This document shows, piece by piece, positions 16,714 to 52,075 of a stretch of 64,000 nucleotides of DNA. This DNA is from Novosphingobium barchaimii LL02 (lineage in GTDB: Bacteria; Pseudomonadota; Alphaproteobacteria; Sphingomonadales; Sphingomonadaceae): positions 627,501 to 691,500 of the forward strand of contig NZ_KQ130454.1 in NCBI RefSeq assembly GCF_001046635.1, in the 5' to 3' direction. Under the pieces are notes generated by a model. It ran no database searches and was not told the origin of the DNA. It saw nothing but the letters and a program-made list of their open reading frames with translations. The position numbers were made by a program, and so were the translations under genes. Within the stretch, counting starts at the first letter, position 1. The number at the start of each line of letters is the position of its first letter.

Positions 16714-16812
16714 GCTTCGACAGGCTCAGCCTGAGCGGGATCGAGATGATACCTCTCACCCCCCTCAGGCAAACATATCCCCTCCCCCCGCTCAGGCTGA
16801 GCCTGTCGAAGC
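16714..16812. repeat. Inverted pair of GCTTCGACAGGCTCAG repeats
   Basis: The 25-base sequence at 16714-16738 (GCTTCGACAGGCTCAGCC then TGAGCGG) and that at 16788-16812 are perfect reverse complements, 49 bases apart, between yebC and ruvC. Each arm also has internal dyad symmetry (CTCAGCCTGAG). Degenerate relatives occur at 49178-49200 and as a pair at 52011-52075, so this is a dispersed REP-like family. Confidence 0.85.
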
Positions 16813-19277: not shown

Positions 19278-19323
19278 GGGGCGCTGCTGGGGGAGACGGC
19301 GCAAGGTTGCTTTTGGGCATGTC

Positions 19324-19725
19324 GTCATCCTGAACTTGTTTCAGGGTCCATCCCTCGTTTTACCCGAAGCGAGGGGCGAAAAACCCAGCGCCACGGCCAG
19401 ATCCCTCCACTCAGGATTCTCGGCGTTGATAAGGTTGATCTTCCACTGCCGGTGCCACCGCTTGAGCTGCTTTTCCCGCGTGATGGCCGGGATCATCTCA
19501 CCGAACATCTCGAAGTGAACCAGGCGATGCACATCGTAGCGGGAGGTGAAGCCCGGCAGCACATCGCTGCGATGCTGCCAGATCCGGCGGATCAGGTTCG
19601 AGGTGACGCCGATGTAGAGCGTGCCATAGCGTCCGCTTGCAAGGATGTAGACGCAAGGCTGGCGCTCGTTCTGCATGGCTCCGGAATGTGCGGCGCGATG
19701 GATGCTGAAACAAGTTCAGCATGAC
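19324..19725. mobile_element. GIY-YIG gene framed by inverted CCCTGAA hairpin repeats
   Basis: The left repeat (19324-19352) is GTCA, a TCCTGAA stem, CTTGT loop, TTCAGGG, TCCATC. The right repeat (19697-19725) is the inverted form with a TGCTGAA/TTCAGCA stem; both stem sides changed together, so pairing is kept. The GIY-YIG gene fills the space between them and takes its stop codon (TGA of CCCTGA) from the left repeat. Three shorter pairs without a gene occur at 22354, 29848 and 33121. This looks like one autonomous and three non-autonomous elements. Confidence 0.6.
19341..19676 (-). CDS. GIY-YIG family endonuclease domain protein
   Basis: 111 residues, essentially one GIY-YIG domain of the short UPF0213/YhbQ-like class. 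The signature strands are VYILASGRYGTLYIGVT, with Tyr10 and Tyr21-Ile-Gly23 forming the GIY/YIG pair. The catalytic Arg is probably within LIRRIWQHR, and the metal-binding Glu in ITREKQLKRW. The ATG at 19676 lies 20 bases inside the right-hand repeat. The last residues (DGP, stop) are encoded by the left-hand repeat. The gene thus seems to be part of a repeat-bounded element and not a housekeeping gene. Confidence 0.85.
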   Translation of the reverse strand: MQNERQPCVYILASGRYGTLYIGVTSNLIRRIWQHRSDVLPGFTSRYDVHRLVHFEMFGEMIPAITREKQLKRWHRQWKINLINAENPEWRDLAVALGFSPLASGKTRDGP

Positions 19726-19740
19726 AAGATTGCCAGAAGT

Positions 19741-20139: not shown

Positions 20140-22214
20140 CCCTCGATACCCAGCTGCCACAGGATGAAGGCGAATTCCTCCGCCGTTTCCTTCAGGCTTT
20201 CGAACCGGCCCGACTTGCCGCCGTGGCCCGCGCCCATGTTGGTCTTGAGGATCAGTTCGTTGTCGTCGGTCTTGAGTTCGCGCAGGCGCGCCACCCACTT
20301 GGCCGGCTCCCAATAGGTCACGCGCGGGTCATTGAGGCCGGCGGTCACCATCAGCGGCGGATAGGCTTGCGCGGCTACCTGATCGTAGGGGCTGTAGCTG
20401 GCGATCAGTTCGAACGCGGCCTTGTCCTCGATCGGGTTGCCCCATTCCGGCCATTCTCCCGGGGTCAGCGGCAGGGTGTCGTCGAGCATCGTGTGCAAGA
20501 CGTCGACGAAGGGCACATGCGCCACCACCGCGCCGAACAGGTCCGGGTCGGAGTTGATGACCGCGCCCATCAGTTCCCCGCCGGCAGAGCCGCCCGAGAT
20601 GCTGATCTTGCCGGCCGAAGTGAAACCGCGCTCCACCAGCCCCTTCGCCACGTCGACGAAGTCGGTGAAGGTGTTGGTGCGCCGCTCCAGCTTGCCGGCC
20701 TTGTACCAGGCGCGGCCCATGTCGTCGCCGCCGCGGATGTGAGCGATGGCATAGGCGAACCCGCGGTCGACGAGGCTGAGACGCGTCGTCGAGAAACCGG
20801 GGTCGATGCTGATGCCGTAAGCGCCGTAGCCGTAGAGATGCAGCGGGCCGGCGCCGGTTCGGTCACGCCGGTAGACGATCGAGACCGGGATCGCGGTACC
20901 GTCTCGCGCGGTGATCTCCAGACGCTCGGTGGCATAGAGCGAGGCGTCGTAGCCCGAGGGGATTTCCTGGACCTTGAGCGTCTCCAGCGTGCGCGCGGCC
21001 ACATCGTAATCCAGCACCGAGGCGGGCGCGACCATCGACTCGTAGCTGAGCCGCAGGGTCGTCATGTGCCATTCGGGGTTGTTCGACAATCCGGCCGAAT
21101 AGCTGGCCTCGGGGAAAGCGATCGCCTCCACGCGGGAAGGGTCGTCGTAGTAACGGACCTGGATCTGGTCGAGACCGGCAAGGCGGCCCTCGATCACGTA
21201 GAAATCGCGGAACAGGTCCGCGCCCAAGAGGTAGAACGCGTCCGAACCCTCGATCAGGGTGGTCCACGTACCGGGATCGGCCAGCGGCGCGGTGGCGAGG
21301 CGGAAGTTCTCGTGCGTGTCGTTGGTGTGGATGTAGAGCACGTCCTCGCGCTCGTCGACGTCGTACTCCACGCCCTTCACGCGCGCCTTCACCAGGATCT
21401 GCGGGCCCAGCGGATCGGCGGCGAGGACCATGCGGCACTCGCTGGTTTCATGATCGCTGGAGCCGATCAGCAGCCACTTTTCGTTAGCGGTCAGCGAGGA
21501 GCCGACGCGGAAACCCTCGTCGTCCTCGTGGTACAGCTCGACATCGCTTTCCAGCGGCTGGCCCAGCCAGTGCAGGCGGGCGTTGTCGGTGCGCCACTGC
21601 TCGTTGGCGAGCGAGTAGACCAGCGCCTTGTCATTCGCCACCCAGACCAGCGAGGACAGCGTGCCGGGGATTTCGTCAGCCAGCAGTTCGCCGGTTTCGA
21701 GGTCCTTGATACGGGCGGTGAAGCGCTCCGAACCGTTGTCGTCATAGGCGTAGGCGAGCAGCTTGCCGTCGGCGCTGGTCGAAATCGCGCCGAGGTTGAA
21801 GTATTCCTTGCCCGCAGCCAGCGCCACTTCGTCGAGCATAAGCTCGTCCGGGCCGCCTGCGACGGGCTTGCGCCACCACTTCTTGTACTCTGCGCCTTCC
21901 TCGAACTCGATCCAGTAGAGCCAGTCGCCATCCTTCTGCGGGACCGAGGTATCGGCCTCCTTGATGCGCCCGCGCATTTCCGTGAACAGGGCATCGATGC
22001 GGCCCTGATGCGCACCCATGCGCGCCTTGAACCAGTCGTTCTCCGCCTCGAGGTGGGCGAGCACTTCCTTGTCGGTCACTTCGGGATAACCGGCGTCGCG
22101 CAGCCATGCGTAATCGTCGGTCACGGTCACGCCGTGGTGGGTGATCGAATGCGGCTTTTTTGCCGCCAGCGGGGGACCGATCAGGGTCGGGGTGGAATCT
22201 GCCATGGTCCCCAT
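20136..22214 (-). CDS. Prolyl oligopeptidase family serine peptidase (oligopeptidase B type)
   Basis: 692 residues. An N-terminal seven-bladed beta-propeller is followed by an alpha/beta hydrolase domain. The nucleophile is in ISGGSAGGELMGA (Ser near residue 540), the Asp in GLNDPRVTYWEP and the His in MGAGHGGKSGR. GGSAGG and the RRGxGYG-like GAYGISIDPGFS region point to the S9A oligopeptidase B group, which cuts short peptides after basic residues. No signal peptide, so cytoplasmic. A second in-frame ATG at 22205 is an equally good start. Confidence 0.92.
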   Translation of the reverse strand: MGTMADSTPTLIGPPLAAKKPHSITHHGVTVTDDYAWLRDAGYPEVTDKEVLAHLEAENDWFKARMGAHQGRIDALFTEMRGRIKEADTSVPQKDGDWLYWIEFEEGAEYKKWWRKPVAGGPDELMLDEVALAAGKEYFNLGAISTSADGKLLAYAYDDNGSERFTARIKDLETGELLADEIPGTLSSLVWVANDKALVYSLANEQWRTDNARLHWLGQPLESDVELYHEDDEGFRVGSSLTANEKWLLIGSSDHETSECRMVLAADPLGPQILVKARVKGVEYDVDEREDVLYIHTNDTHENFRLATAPLADPGTWTTLIEGSDAFYLLGADLFRDFYVIEGRLAGLDQIQVRYYDDPSRVEAIAFPEASYSAGLSNNPEWHMTTLRLSYESMVAPASVLDYDVAARTLETLKVQEIPSGYDASLYATERLEITARDGTAIPVSIVYRRDRTGAGPLHLYGYGAYGISIDPGFSTTRLSLVDRGFAYAIAHIRGGDDMGRAWYKAGKLERRTNTFTDFVDVAKGLVERGFTSAGKISISGGSAGGELMGAVINSDPDLFGAVVAHVPFVDVLHTMLDDTLPLTPGEWPEWGNPIEDKAAFELIASYSPYDQVAAQAYPPLMVTAGLNDPRVTYWEPAKWVARLRELKTDDNELILKTNMGAGHGGKSGRFESLKETAEEFAFILWQLGIEG

Positions 22215-22275
22215 CTAGGGGCTGGGCGGGTCAAGGTGAAGCGGTCTTGCGCAAAACTGCGGTGCGTTCCCCAAT

Positions 22276-22359
22276 CGCGTCACCACGCGCTTCGGTCACT
22301 CCGCGTTCCGGTCAATCGCTTCCGGTCACCCACGCTCCCGGTCACCCGCTTCCGTCACC
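22276..22359 (+). repeat. Degenerate tandem GTCAC repeats
   Basis: About six imperfect units of 13-16 bases, each beginning GTCAC and ending TTCCG or close to it (for example GTCACTCCGCGTTCCG, then GTCAATCGCTTCCG, then GTCACCCACGCTCCCG). The last GTCAC merges into the GTCA of the hairpin repeat at 22354. The units are too short and irregular for CRISPR. Confidence 0.55.
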
Positions 22360-22486
22360 CTGAACTTGTTTCAGGGTCCATCTGCCGGTTTACGCCGAGC
22401 CGTTACCCCGCCAACCGCCTTTTCAGCTTACTGTTCCAACCTCGGGACCGGCGGCGCGATGGACCCTGAAACAAGTTCAGGGTGAC
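22354..22486. repeat. Inverted pair of CCCTGAA hairpin repeats, no gene inside
   Basis: Left copy 22354-22382 (GTCA, CCCTGAA stem, CTTGT, TTCAGGG, TCCATC). Right copy 22458-22486 is its exact reverse complement. The 75 bases between hold no open frame. The right arm is preceded by CGGCGC, as in the other pairs. The rest of the 449-base gap (22215-22663) shows only the tandem GTCAC units to the left and the aminopeptidase leader to the right. Confidence 0.85.
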
Positions 22487-22663
22487 GAGGGCTTTTTATG
22501 GCGGCCGCTCGGCTGGCCGCCTCCCGGCCAACGGTTCTGAACACTTGCGCCCGGCGCCGCACTTCGGGGGCGAGCGAGGAAACCAACCTCCGCCGCCGCT
22601 TCCCCTTCCGCCCTACAAACCCTATGTTCGCCGCATGACACCCGCAAGCCGGATACCTTACCC

Positions 22664-24484
22664 ATGCTGATGAATACCCATGAAGCCCGCCTCGATGCTC
22701 TCCGCAAGGAGTTGAAGGCGCGCGGCCTCGACGGCTTCGTGATCCCGATTTCCGACGAACACATGAGCGAATATGTCGGCGGCTATGCCCAGCGCCTCGA
22801 ATGGCTGACCGGCTTCGGCGGATCGGCGGGTACGGCGGCGGTACTGACGGACCCCGCGCTGACCCCGGCGGCGGCGATGTTCGTCGACGGGCGCTACACC
22901 CTGCAGGTGCGCGATCAGGTCGACGGGCGGCTTTACGCCTACGAAAGCGTGCCGCAGACGACCATCGCCGCATGGCTGGCCGTCCACGCCCCGGCAGGCG
23001 CGAAGATCGGCTACGATGCATGGCTGCACGGGTCGAAGTGGGCGCAGGCCGCCGAGGCGGCGCTGGCGGCCAAAGGCGGCACCCTCGTCGCGGTGGACGG
23101 CAACCCGGTCGACACCGTGTGGCAGGACCGCCCGGCCCCGTCGCCCGCCCCTGCCCTCGTCCATCCCGACCGGTTCACCGGCGAGGTCAGCGAGGCCAAG
23201 CGCGCCGCCGTTTCCGAATGGCTGGCAGGGCGAAACCTGGACGCCGCCGTCATCACCGCGCTCGATTCGATCGCCTGGCTGCTCAACATTCGCGGCACCG
23301 ACGTGGAACGCACGCCGGTCGCCCTGTCCTATGTCATCGCGCGCGCCGATGGCACCGCCGACCTGTTCATCGCGCCCGAGAAGGTGACAGACGACCTGCG
23401 CCGCCACCTCGGCAATGCGGTCAGCATCAAGCCGCGTGACGGGTTCGTGGCGGCCTTGCGCGATCTTTCGGGCAAGCGCGTCTCCGTCGACCCTGAACGG
23501 GCGGTCAGCGCGATCTTCGAGGAGCTTCGCAAGGCGGGCGCCGCCGTGGTCGAGGACCGCGATCCCACCGTGCTGCCCAAGGCGATCAAGAACCCGGTCG
23601 AGCAGGCCGGCCACCGCGCCGCGCAGGCCCGCGACGGCGCCGCAGTATCGCGCTTCCTGCACTGGCTCGCGGTGGAAGCGCCCAAGGGCGAAGTCACCGA
23701 GATGTCCGCCGCCGACAAGCTGCAGGCCTGCCGCCAGGAAGCGGGCGACCTGCGCGACCTGTCGTTCGACACGATTTCCGGCGCGGGGCCGAACGGCGCG
23801 GTCGTCCATTACCGCGTTTCGGAGGAGACCAACCGCACGCTGGAGGCCAATTCGGTCTACCTCGTCGATTCGGGCGGCCAGTATCCCGACGGCACCACCG
23901 ACATCACCCGCACCGTCTGGGTCGGCCCCGGTGCTCCGGGTCCCGAAGTGAAGGACCGCTTCACCCGCGTGCTCAAGGGCCATATCGCCCTGGCCTCGGC
24001 GGTGTTTCCCAAGGGCACGGCGGGCAGCCAGCTGGACGTTCTGGCGCGGATGCCGCTGTGGCAGGCCGGGCTGGACTATGCCCACGGCACCGGCCACGGC
24101 GTGGGCAGCTTCCTCTCGGTCCACGAAGGCCCGCAGCGCATCGCCAAGTCGGCGGGCGGCCAGCCCGGCGGCGACCAGCCGCTGCTGGCCGGCATGTTCC
24201 TCTCCAACGAACCCGGCTACTACAAGGCCGGCGAATACGGCATCCGCATCGAGAACCTCGTCCTTGTCGAACCGCGCACGATCGCCGGCGGCGAAGGCGA
24301 CTTCCTCGGCTTCGAGACGTTGACTCATGTGCCGATCGAGCGGCATCTGGTCGACACCGGCCTGCTGACCGAAACGGAGATCGCATGGTGGAACACCTAT
24401 CACGCCCGTGTCCTGGAGATCATCGGCCCGCAGCTGGAAGGCGCCGCCAAGGCCTGGCTCGAAGCGCAGTGCGCGGCGCTGTGA
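22664..24484 (+). CDS. Xaa-Pro aminopeptidase P family protein
   Basis: 606 residues, the long three-domain form of aminopeptidase P (two creatinase-like N-terminal domains plus an M24 metallopeptidase domain). The dinuclear metal ligands are visible: DSGGQYPDGTTDITRT (two Asp), GTGHGVGSFLSVHEGP (His), SNEPGYY (Glu) and IRIENLVL (Glu). It removes N-terminal residues ahead of proline. No signal peptide. A second ATG six bases on (22670) could also be the start. The cupin gene follows after one base. Confidence 0.93.
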   Translation: MLMNTHEARLDALRKELKARGLDGFVIPISDEHMSEYVGGYAQRLEWLTGFGGSAGTAAVLTDPALTPAAAMFVDGRYTLQVRDQVDGRLYAYESVPQTTIAAWLAVHAPAGAKIGYDAWLHGSKWAQAAEAALAAKGGTLVAVDGNPVDTVWQDRPAPSPAPALVHPDRFTGEVSEAKRAAVSEWLAGRNLDAAVITALDSIAWLLNIRGTDVERTPVALSYVIARADGTADLFIAPEKVTDDLRRHLGNAVSIKPRDGFVAALRDLSGKRVSVDPERAVSAIFEELRKAGAAVVEDRDPTVLPKAIKNPVEQAGHRAAQARDGAAVSRFLHWLAVEAPKGEVTEMSAADKLQACRQEAGDLRDLSFDTISGAGPNGAVVHYRVSEETNRTLEANSVYLVDSGGQYPDGTTDITRTVWVGPGAPGPEVKDRFTRVLKGHIALASAVFPKGTAGSQLDVLARMPLWQAGLDYAHGTGHGVGSFLSVHEGPQRIAKSAGGQPGGDQPLLAGMFLSNEPGYYKAGEYGIRIENLVLVEPRTIAGGEGDFLGFETLTHVPIERHLVDTGLLTETEIAWWNTYHARVLEIIGPQLEGAAKAWLEAQCAAL

Positions 24485-29778: not shown

Positions 29779-29847
29779 CCGGCCGTCTCCAAGTTTCCCA
29801 CCGGGTGTAGCGCGATCGCGGTTGATGTCCCATGCCAAAAACGGCCC

Positions 29848-29983
29848 GTCACCCTGAACTTGTTTCAGGGTCCATCGTGCGGCTTTTCGCGGTCAGTCGG
29901 CTTTACCGAACTCCCCGCGCGGTTTGCATTCTCACCGTGCGGAATACGCGGCGCGATGGACCCTGAAACAAGTTCAGGGCGAC
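29848..29983. repeat. Inverted pair of CCCTGAA hairpin repeats, no gene inside
   Basis: Left copy 29848-29876 and right copy 29955-29983 are inverted copies of the family, with one change in the right copy (GGCGAC instead of GGTGAC). The 78 bases between contain no open frame. The boundaries TCCATCGTGCGGCTTTT and GCGGCGCGATGGA match the corresponding inner ends of the other pairs. Located between divergent DUF853 and pabBC genes. Confidence 0.85.
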
Positions 29984-30076
29984 GGGGACAAACGGACATG
30001 CCCTGATCCATGCGAACGTAAAGCCCCCCGGCACTTTGCCACCGGCCCGCAGTGCCGCTAAAGGCCGGGACAGCCT

Positions 30077-33072: not shown

Positions 33073-33120
33073 AGCTGAGGTGGCAGGCCCGGCACCCCTC
33101 TCCTTGCCCCCCAACACCCC

Positions 33121-33208
33121 GTCACCCTGAACTCGTTTCAGGGTCCATCGTGCCGATCAAATGGGGGAGTGAACCGTGAGATGGACCCTGAAACAAGTTC
33201 AGGGTGAC
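33121..33208. repeat. Inverted pair of CCCTGAA hairpin repeats, shortest spacing
   Basis: Left copy 33121-33149 (loop CTCGT in place of CTTGT) and right copy 33180-33208. Only 30 bases lie between them. They occupy most of the gap between the aminotransferase and pseudouridine synthase genes; the remainder of 33073-33347 is the leader of the latter. Confidence 0.85.
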
Positions 33209-33347
33209 GACTGCGGGTGACGATTGCGGACGGTAATTGTCGATGTCGGTCCGCTCTTCGATCCGCCCCCAATTTGAACGGGGGCAGACTTTCGGAAAGG
33301 TCGCGCCTAAAGAAGCGCCATCAACGCATTTGGAAAAAAGACGTACA

Positions 33348-52010: not shown

Positions 52011-52075
52011 CTTCGCCAAGCTCAGGATGAGCGGAACGCGTGCCCCTCACCCCGCTCAGACTGAGCCTGTCGAAG
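52011..52075. repeat. REP-like inverted pair inside the GTA cluster
   Basis: CTTCGCCAAGCTCAGGATGAGCGG (in two parts, 52011-52034) faces CCGCTCAGACTGAGCC then TGTCGAAG (52052-52075). Same family as the yebC-ruvC pair. It lies between gp8 and gp9, one of the few non-coding gaps in the cluster, and could attenuate or stabilise the operon transcript at this point. Confidence 0.75.

What the first reader, a model, noticed from the sequence alone, without database searches (positions are those of the whole stretch)
19324..19725. GIY-YIG nuclease gene exactly enclosed by inverted hairpin repeats that supply its stop codon
Seen: the 336-base GIY-YIG gene occupies nearly all the space between two inverted hairpin repeats; its stop TGA is the TGA of the left repeat's CCCTGA, and its start is 20 bases inside the right repeat. 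The right repeat has a stem changed on both sides (TGCTGAA with TTCAGCA), so the fold is under selection or was copied as a fold. Inference: the nuclease may mobilise these repeats, similar to RAYT transposases and REP elements but with a GIY-YIG enzyme. This would be a nuclease-driven short palindromic element.
Basis: partly seen in the sequence, partly recalled or inferred. Interest (0 to 1): 0.78.

Follow-up and report, generated by a model that had tools for sequence, protein, structure and literature searches.

The report
GIY-YIG nuclease paired with DNA hairpins
A tiny DNA-cutting enzyme gene sits exactly between two inverted copies of a short hairpin repeat that is scattered through the genome, and related enzymes in other bacteria sit between their own matching hairpins, which points to the missing partner enzyme of a large family of bacterial repeats.

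Summary
The 111-aa GIY-YIG gene lies between inverted hairpins. Of 80 homologous loci in named sphingomonad genomes, 73 have such hairpins on both sides, 80 on at least one. The unit has sharp YGTC edges and near-fixed length. The hairpins fit the published CGTC-tagged REP superfamily, said in 2013 to lack a dedicated transposase. More distant GIY-YIG homologues are flanked by other CGTC palindromes, and hairpin type follows enzyme relationship: in one genus 11 genes have only type 1 and 9 only type 2, even two genes in one genome. Each gene type predicts genome copies of its own repeat, not the other. No Y1/RAYT gene examined is so flanked (0 of 19). All four hairpin pairs of the window are absent from the two nearest genomes; plasmids show sites with and without the gene. 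UPF0213-like GIY-YIG genes pair with another palindrome. Against: 28 of 69 homologues in a class-wide sample lack clear inverted repeats; no target duplication, clean junction or movement was seen. Best reading: a RAYT/REP-like system run by an unrelated, probably structure-selective nuclease. Cutting and mobilisation are inferred.

The parts
19323..19352 (+). left CGTC REP hairpin (tag CGTC 19323-19326, stem ATCCTGAA/TTCAGGGT, loop CTTGT, tail CCATC)
   Evidence: consensus of 77 loci
19341..19676 (-). GIY-YIG nuclease gene, 111 aa; stop TGA supplied by the left hairpin
   Evidence: PF01541 E 8.3e-13; Y10, Y21, H35, E68, N87 invariant in 59 aligned homologues, R31 at least 90%; AlphaFold2 pLDDT 86.8
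19697..19726 (-). right REP hairpin (tag TGTC 19726-19723, stem ATGCTGAA/TTCAGCAT, loop CTTGT, tail CCATC)
22353..22487 (.). short inverted pair of the same hairpin, no gene inside
   Evidence: absent from G001 and G033
29847..29984 (.). short inverted pair of the same hairpin, no gene inside
   Evidence: absent from G001 and G033
33120..33209 (.). short inverted pair of the same hairpin, no gene inside
   Evidence: absent from G001 and G033

Best explanation
The 404-base stretch 19323-19726 is a self-contained repeat-nuclease unit: a small GIY-YIG nuclease gene bounded by two outward-facing, inverted CGTC-tagged REP hairpins. Shown by sequence: the unit, its sharp ends, the matching dispersed hairpin pairs, the match of hairpin type to enzyme relationship, and presence/absence at orthologous places. 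Inferred: the nuclease recognises its own hairpin when it is extruded on single-stranded or cruciform DNA, cuts at or near the YGTC/stem boundary, and host repair of that break copies or moves the bounded DNA, either the gene unit or, in trans, the short 74-75-base and 119-126-base pairs. It would thus be for CGTC REPs what the HUH transposase RAYT is for GTAG REPs, with unrelated chemistry and no covalent DNA intermediate (the last from general knowledge of GIY-YIG enzymes). An alternative route on the same parts is homing: the enzyme cuts a solo palindrome in its middle and the unit is copied in by matching arms.
For: 73 of 80 close homologues have the hairpin outward on both sides within 200 bp, 80 of 80 on at least one; elsewhere in those loci 19 hits in 461 kb. 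By a stricter test (NGTC, stem 8 or more, loop 4-5, tail CCA) 62 both, 13 one, 5 none of 80, and 0 of 80 when displaced by 400 bp. Motif-blind inverted-repeat score of 15 or more: 77/80, 27/30, 41/69, 17/26 in four samples; displaced 0/80, 0/29, 0/66, 0/24; shuffled 0 of 615. Edges: bases outside the YGTC tag have at most 0.39 bit (10 or more bases out), inside near 2 bits, in 77 rows (three of them duplicates). Compensated stems. Ends of one unit are of one type in 110 of 114 and share stem variants in 40 of 71 against 22.6 shuffled, 0 of 2000 as many. Type against tree: 15 changes, shuffled mean 40.4, 0 of 200 as low, 88 proteins. In one genus no locus mixes types: 11 only type 1, 9 only type 2, including both kinds in genomes G014 and G021; 41 of 42 rows there have inverted repeats. 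Type-1 gene with at least 2 type-1 REPs 10/10 against 10/27 (p 6e-4); type-2 gene with at least 5 type-2 REPs 7/8 against 3/29 (p 8.5e-5); crossed p 0.25-1. Inverted pairs come in discrete sizes: 74-75 in 18 of 29 short pairs, 384-390 in 59 of 72 long ones. Absence at the same places. Protein under purifying selection, crude median dN/dS 0.22 in 425 pairs. Profile and fold neighbours include UPF0213, Slx1 and UvrC.
Against: No binding, cutting or movement was tested. No target-site duplication; at the window's four places 20 to 400 further bases differ, so junctions are not clean and loss in the relatives is not excluded. Many homologues lack clear flanking repeats: 28 of 69 (class) and 9 of 26 (phylum) score under 15; 37 of 70 and 8 of 26 have no strict CGTC hairpin on either side; two Rhizobium plasmid loci score 7.5. 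10 of 27 same-genus genomes without a type-1 gene still have 2 or more type-1 REPs, and with a limit of 5 copies the type-1 link is only p 0.056. Some units keep orthologous flanks in related genera, so they are not jumping often. Foldseek gave no match at E 0.001 or better.
Confidence: 0.72

Rival explanations
1. The repeats are moved by something else (for example a RAYT or another Y1/HUH transposase) and the GIY-YIG gene is a passenger that happened to be caught between two REPs and now rides along.
For: The held library's only detailed paper on CGTC REPs proposes mobilisation by other transposases (PMC3733652). REPs occur in genomes without a matching GIY-YIG gene.
Against: 0 of 19 Y1_Tnp loci examined (of 31 matches; fragments left out) have CGTC hairpins within 350 bp, and 10 of 16 REP-rich genomes have no Y1_Tnp match at all. 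A passenger would not match hairpin type to enzyme branch again and again, nor would a second GIY-YIG family be paired with a second palindrome.
Confidence: 0.1
2. Homing: the nuclease is a selfish gene that inserts itself into pre-existing REP palindromes; the REPs are targets, not dependants, and spread by other means.
For: In Sphingobium plasmids TomTYG74 and TomTYG64 the place of the gene holds one palindrome with a tag at each end, GTCACCCCGGG(TCAAG)CCCGGGGTGAC in TomTYG64 (one stem base differs in TomTYG74), which is what a cut-in-the-middle target would look like. GIY-YIG is a known homing-nuclease domain (general knowledge).
Against: The same solo palindrome is expected from deletion between the direct repeats in the two hairpin arms, so the direction is open. 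The window's place has no palindrome of this kind in G001 and G033. Copy numbers of the repeat follow the gene type.
Confidence: 0.15
3. Domesticated gene with regulatory repeats: the hairpins are terminators or mRNA stabilisers of a resident DNA-repair nuclease and have nothing to do with mobility.
For: The downstream hairpin supplies the stop codon in 62 of 75 loci; some units are orthologous between related genera.
Against: The same hairpins occur dispersed in up to 90 copies per genome, in inverted pairs of set sizes; flanks are unrelated between most loci, with edges at the tag; the gene is absent from the same place in near relatives.
Confidence: 0.06

Closest known systems
CGTC-tagged REP superfamily (Di Nocera et al. 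2013, PMC3733652: abstract and sections on CGTC families, dimers, genome distribution and discussion read)
   Same: Tag CGTC or TGTC, 8-base stem, 5-base loop, tail CCA, inverted dimers, intergenic, tens of copies; N. aromaticivorans CGTC-2 and Neisseria dRS3 (CGTC-1) are named there.
   Different: The paper finds no associated enzyme ('apparently lack a dedicated transposase') and left REPs in hypothetical proteins under 120 aa out of its intragenic count; the genes here are about 95-110 aa.
RAYT / REP / REPIN systems (REPtrons)
   Same: One small nuclease gene flanked by its own inverted palindromes, related to dispersed palindrome pairs; enzyme and repeat diversify together.
   Different: RAYTs are Y1 HUH transposases with GTAG-tagged REPs; this protein is GIY-YIG, with CGTC tags. 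Works like, not a member.
UPF0213/YhbQ-like GIY-YIG proteins
   Same: Nearest solved relatives by profile (1zg2 E 1.8e-9, 1ywl E 1.5e-5) and by fold rank; also flanked by palindromes in alphaproteobacteria.
   Different: A separate subfamily (40-57 bits against the family profile, others over 100) with a different palindrome, CTGAG..TGTCGAAG.
Free-standing GIY-YIG homing endonucleases (I-TevI type)
   Same: Catalytic domain; a gene that may spread through the cuts it makes.
   Different: Only about 111 aa with no separate DNA-binding region; not in an intron or intein; bounded by hairpins.
Slx1 and UvrC N-terminal nuclease
   Same: GIY-YIG fold; Slx1 acts on branched DNA, which fits cutting of a hairpin base.
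   Different: Repair proteins, not tied to repeats; sequence match weak (E 0.04 and above).

Membership tests
CGTC REP superfamily (Di Nocera 2013) | unpaired CGTC (or TGTC/CCTC) tag at one end | tested here: met
   YGTC in nearly all 154 ends of 77 rows: GTC 154 of 154, C or T before it in 152
CGTC REP superfamily (Di Nocera 2013) | stem 8-9, loop 4-5, tail CCA | tested here: met
   stem 8, loop CTTGT/CTCGT, tail CCA
CGTC REP superfamily (Di Nocera 2013) | many dispersed copies, mostly inverted dimers | tested here: met
   up to 90 strict copies per genome, about equal on both strands, many listed as close inverted pairs; 29 short pairs in the loci held
CGTC REP superfamily (Di Nocera 2013) | no associated enzyme gene | tested here: not met
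   GIY-YIG association; this changes the family description rather than the repeat's place in it
RAYT/REPtron | Y1 HUH transposase (PF01797) | tested here: not met
   the protein matches only GIY-YIG in Pfam
RAYT/REPtron | GTAG-tagged REPs | tested here: not met
   tag is YGTC
RAYT/REPtron | gene flanked by its own inverted REPs | tested here: met
   73 of 80
RAYT/REPtron | enzyme cleaves REP hairpin DNA | not testable with these tools
   needs purified protein
GIY-YIG nucleases | catalytic motif residues | tested here: met
   Y10, Y21, H35, E68, N87 invariant and R31 at least 90% in 59 sequences; which residues are catalytic is recalled
GIY-YIG homing endonuclease | intron/intein home or separate DNA-binding domain | tested here: not met
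   111-aa single-domain model; gene between hairpins
Classical IS/MITE | target-site duplication at terminal inverted repeats | tested here: inconclusive
   terminal inverted repeats present; no duplication seen, junctions not clean

The most novel reading that the evidence does not exclude
GIY-YIG nucleases are a second great class of REP-spreading enzymes, unrelated to RAYTs: each branch of the family has co-evolved with its own CGTC palindrome, which would give the orphan CGTC superfamily (including Neisseria dRS3 and, by extension, Rickettsia RPE-4/RPE-6) its enzyme, and UPF0213-like GIY-YIG proteins do the same for the CTGAGCTTGTCGAAG palindromes. Structure-selective cutting of hairpins by a minimal single-domain nuclease would be enough to drive short palindromic elements through bacterial genomes.
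Probability: 0.55. Interest if true: 0.92.

Novelty: new variant of a known kind. Interest (0 to 1): 0.85.

Why it matters
CGTC REPs are among the commonest short repeats of alphaproteobacteria and include Neisseria dRS3; since 2013 the literature seen here says they have no dedicated enzyme. A clade-by-clade match to a small GIY-YIG nuclease makes that question directly testable with one purified protein and one hairpin. It would also mean that RAYT-like upkeep of palindromes arose with an unrelated nuclease, and would give a role to short proteins now annotated as 'GIY-YIG nuclease family protein' or 'excinuclease ABC subunit C'.

Tried and rejected
Rejected: (1) a chance inverted repeat. 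(2) RAYT/Y1 as partner. (3) Confounding by species: two genes in one genome carry different types. (4) The weaker GIY-YIG hits (L181-L200) as a negative control: they have 0 of 20 CGTC hairpins but 13 of 20 have inverted repeats of another palindrome, so they became a second case; the displaced flanks are the control used. (5) A first grouping that put G032 with the type-2 genes was corrected after the tree.

In the paper searches no listed paper joins GIY-YIG genes to REPs; no paper holds both 'GIY-YIG' and 'extragenic palindromic' or 'GIY-YIG' and 'dRS3'. bioRxiv and most subscription papers are not held, so a published or preprinted link cannot be excluded. Papers seen: PMC3733652 abstract and five parts; PMC12306157, PMC6006769 and PMC8049555 by word search only; the rest as listings.

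Rows dropped before counts: one search left out 64 untyped and 4 mixed loci of 220, five chosen rows (four repeated loci and L017), and took every sixth type-1 row of L031-L110; one search used 24 of 29 matches; one search used 19 of 31 matches. The 220 loci hold at least five repeats of one locus under two ids (L002/L040, L005/L051, L008/L060, L009/L099, L011/L111).

Full report
What is there. The window holds a 111-aa GIY-YIG gene (19341-19676, minus strand; PF01541 E 8.3e-13) between two inverted hairpins with outward tags, CGTC.ATCCTGAA(CTTGT)TTCAGGGT.CCATC and TGTC.ATGCTGAA(CTTGT)TTCAGCAT.CCATC. The gene's TGA lies in the left hairpin; its start is 20 bases inside the right one. The core TGAACTTGTTTCA occurs 9 times in 64 kb with up to 2 mismatches (0.29 expected); eight of these form four inverted pairs, one of which holds the gene.

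It is general. A scan of named bacterial and archaeal genomes gave 204 relatives, of which the best 80 were kept. In 73 of 80 the hairpin stands outward on both sides within 200 bp, in the other 7 on one side; elsewhere in those and 30 further loci there are 19 hits in 461 kb. Under a stricter definition 62 are two-sided, 13 one-sided, 5 none; shifted by 400 bp, 0 of 80. Aligned on the hairpin, 77 rows (three duplicates among them) show a sharp border: at most 0.39 bit from 10 bases outside, near 2 bits from the GTC inward. The unit is mostly 387 bases core to core (46 of 72 long pairs; 384-390 in 59 of 72). Stem pairs covary. The downstream hairpin carries the stop codon in 62 of 75 loci.

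What the repeats are. They fit the CGTC-tagged REP superfamily of Di Nocera and colleagues (PMC3733652; abstract and sections on CGTC families, dimers, distribution and discussion read): tag, 8-base stem, 5-base loop, CCA tail, inverted dimers. [quoted passage not shown]

Other branches, other hairpins. In the 30 loci first fetched from relatives, 19 lack the type-1 core, but many of these carry other CGTC palindromes in the same arrangement. Across class and phylum samples the motif-blind inverted-repeat score reaches 15 in 41 of 69 and 17 of 26 loci, against 0 of 66 and 0 of 24 in displaced flanks. So a large minority, 28 of 69 and 9 of 26, have no clear inverted repeat; this is the main result against a universal link. 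Strict CGTC hairpins on at least one side: 33 of 70 and 18 of 26. Where both ends could be typed they agree in 110 of 114. On a tree of 88 proteins the three types need 15 changes against 40.4 on shuffled labels, 0 of 200 as low; few columns are available and deep forks are open.

Within one genus the pattern is clean. Of 42 GIY-YIG rows (the window's included), 11 have type-1 hairpins on both sides and no type-2, 9 have type-2 on both sides and no type-1, none mixes them. Nine of the 11 form one group (support 91); seven of the 9 form one (85) and the other two another (98); two type-1 rows are placed openly. Genomes G014 and G021 hold one gene of each kind. The other 22 rows have neither; 21 of them have an inverted-repeat score of at least 15 from further palindromes, such as CGTCATTGCGAG..GCGAAGCAATCCAG and CGTCGCCCCGTG(CTTGA)CACGGGGC.

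Genome copy numbers agree. In 37 same-genus genomes, a type-1 gene goes with at least 2 type-1 REPs in 10 of 10 against 10 of 27 without (p 6e-4; with a limit of 5 copies 7/10 against 8/27, p 0.056); a type-2 gene goes with at least 5 type-2 REPs in 7 of 8 against 3 of 29 (p 8.5e-5). Crossed comparisons give p 0.25 to 1. These tests do not correct for relatedness among genomes.

Rival enzyme. Y1_Tnp, the RAYT family, matches in 19 of 61 relatives; 0 of 19 loci examined has CGTC hairpins within 350 bp, and 10 of 16 REP-rich genomes have no match.

Presence and absence. The window's own assembly is not held. In its two nearest genomes (G001 at 92-98%, G033 at about 84-93% identity in aligned blocks) the same region has 0 strict type-1 hairpins, where the window has 7. 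The place of the gene is 463 bases wide between the neighbouring genes in the window and about 33 in the relatives. All four places are empty in both, but 20 to 400 bases around them differ, so junctions are not clean and no duplication is seen; the place in G030 holds a different REP dimer. Among plasmid records 33 hold a homologue; 13 loci were read, 9 with an inverted-repeat score of at least 15. In Azospirillum lipoferum the unit lies between sufB and sufC; in Neisseria gonorrhoeae the gene lies in a cluster of dRS3-type (CGTC-1) hairpins. Of 11 Sphingobium plasmids with the same neighbourhood, 7 have the gene and 4 do not; TomTYG74 and TomTYG64 have a single palindrome with both tags at that place, either a deletion scar or a homing target. 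Shinella and pNL2 relatives also lack the gene.

The enzyme. Y10, Y21, H35, E68 and N87 are invariant in 59 homologues; crude median dN/dS is 0.22. The AlphaFold2 model has pLDDT 86.8. Nearest solved proteins are UPF0213 proteins, then UvrC and Slx1 (no Foldseek match at E 0.001 or better). Slx1 cuts branched DNA, which suits a hairpin substrate; this is inference.

A second pairing. UPF0213-like GIY-YIG genes have 0 of 20 CGTC hairpins, but in a partly overlapping sample of 24, 13 have CTGAG..TGTCGAAG palindromes on both sides, 6 on one, 5 on none, with 0 displaced inverted repeats. The main family shows this palindrome in 1 of 220 loci, on one side. Two GIY-YIG families with two palindromes make a passenger explanation unlikely.

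Mechanism. Shown: unit structure, edges, type matching, copy-number matching, absence at orthologous places. Inferred: hairpin recognition, cutting near YGTC, repair-mediated copying of the unit and, in trans, of the short pairs. Homing into solo palindromes is a live alternative route. Novelty: the repeats and the GIY-YIG domain are known, and the arrangement works like RAYT/REP; the pairing with an unrelated enzyme was not found in the searches listed under Tried and rejected.

Noticed in passing
16715-16811 and 52011-52075: Inverted pairs of the other palindrome, CTGAGCCTGTCGAAG (6 matches with up to 2 mismatches in the window, 0.65 expected), the one that flanks UPF0213-like GIY-YIG genes elsewhere.
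   Followed up: partly
L181-L200, L291-L310, L316-L319: UPF0213-like GIY-YIG genes flanked by CTGAG..TGTCGAAG palindromes: 13 of 24 on both sides, 6 on one.
   Followed up: partly
L278, L280 (Sphingobium plasmids TomTYG74, TomTYG64): A single palindrome with a tag at both ends stands where sister plasmids have the whole gene unit: scar or target.
   Followed up: partly
L266:1498-1791: A GIY-YIG unit with CGTC-1 hairpins lies between sufB and sufC of Azospirillum lipoferum.
   Followed up: no
L265:1501-1764: An unannotated GIY-YIG homologue lies within a cluster of dRS3-type repeats in Neisseria gonorrhoeae records labelled as plasmids of about 2.17 Mb.
   Followed up: partly
L230 (G030, same place as 19323-19726): A dimer of a different CGTC palindrome, CGTCATTGC..GAAGCAATCCAG, occupies the place of the unit between the same two neighbouring genes.
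   Followed up: no
20223-22469 (+) and 22428-23021 (-): Listed frames end in peptides such as HPELVSGS that are only read-through of the repeats; such frames are likely spurious.
   Followed up: no
L277:1489-1779: The Sinorhizobium meliloti homologue is flanked by ATTCCTGTGACAGGCACAGGAATGAGGG-type inverted repeats, which do not fit the CGTC pattern.
   Followed up: no
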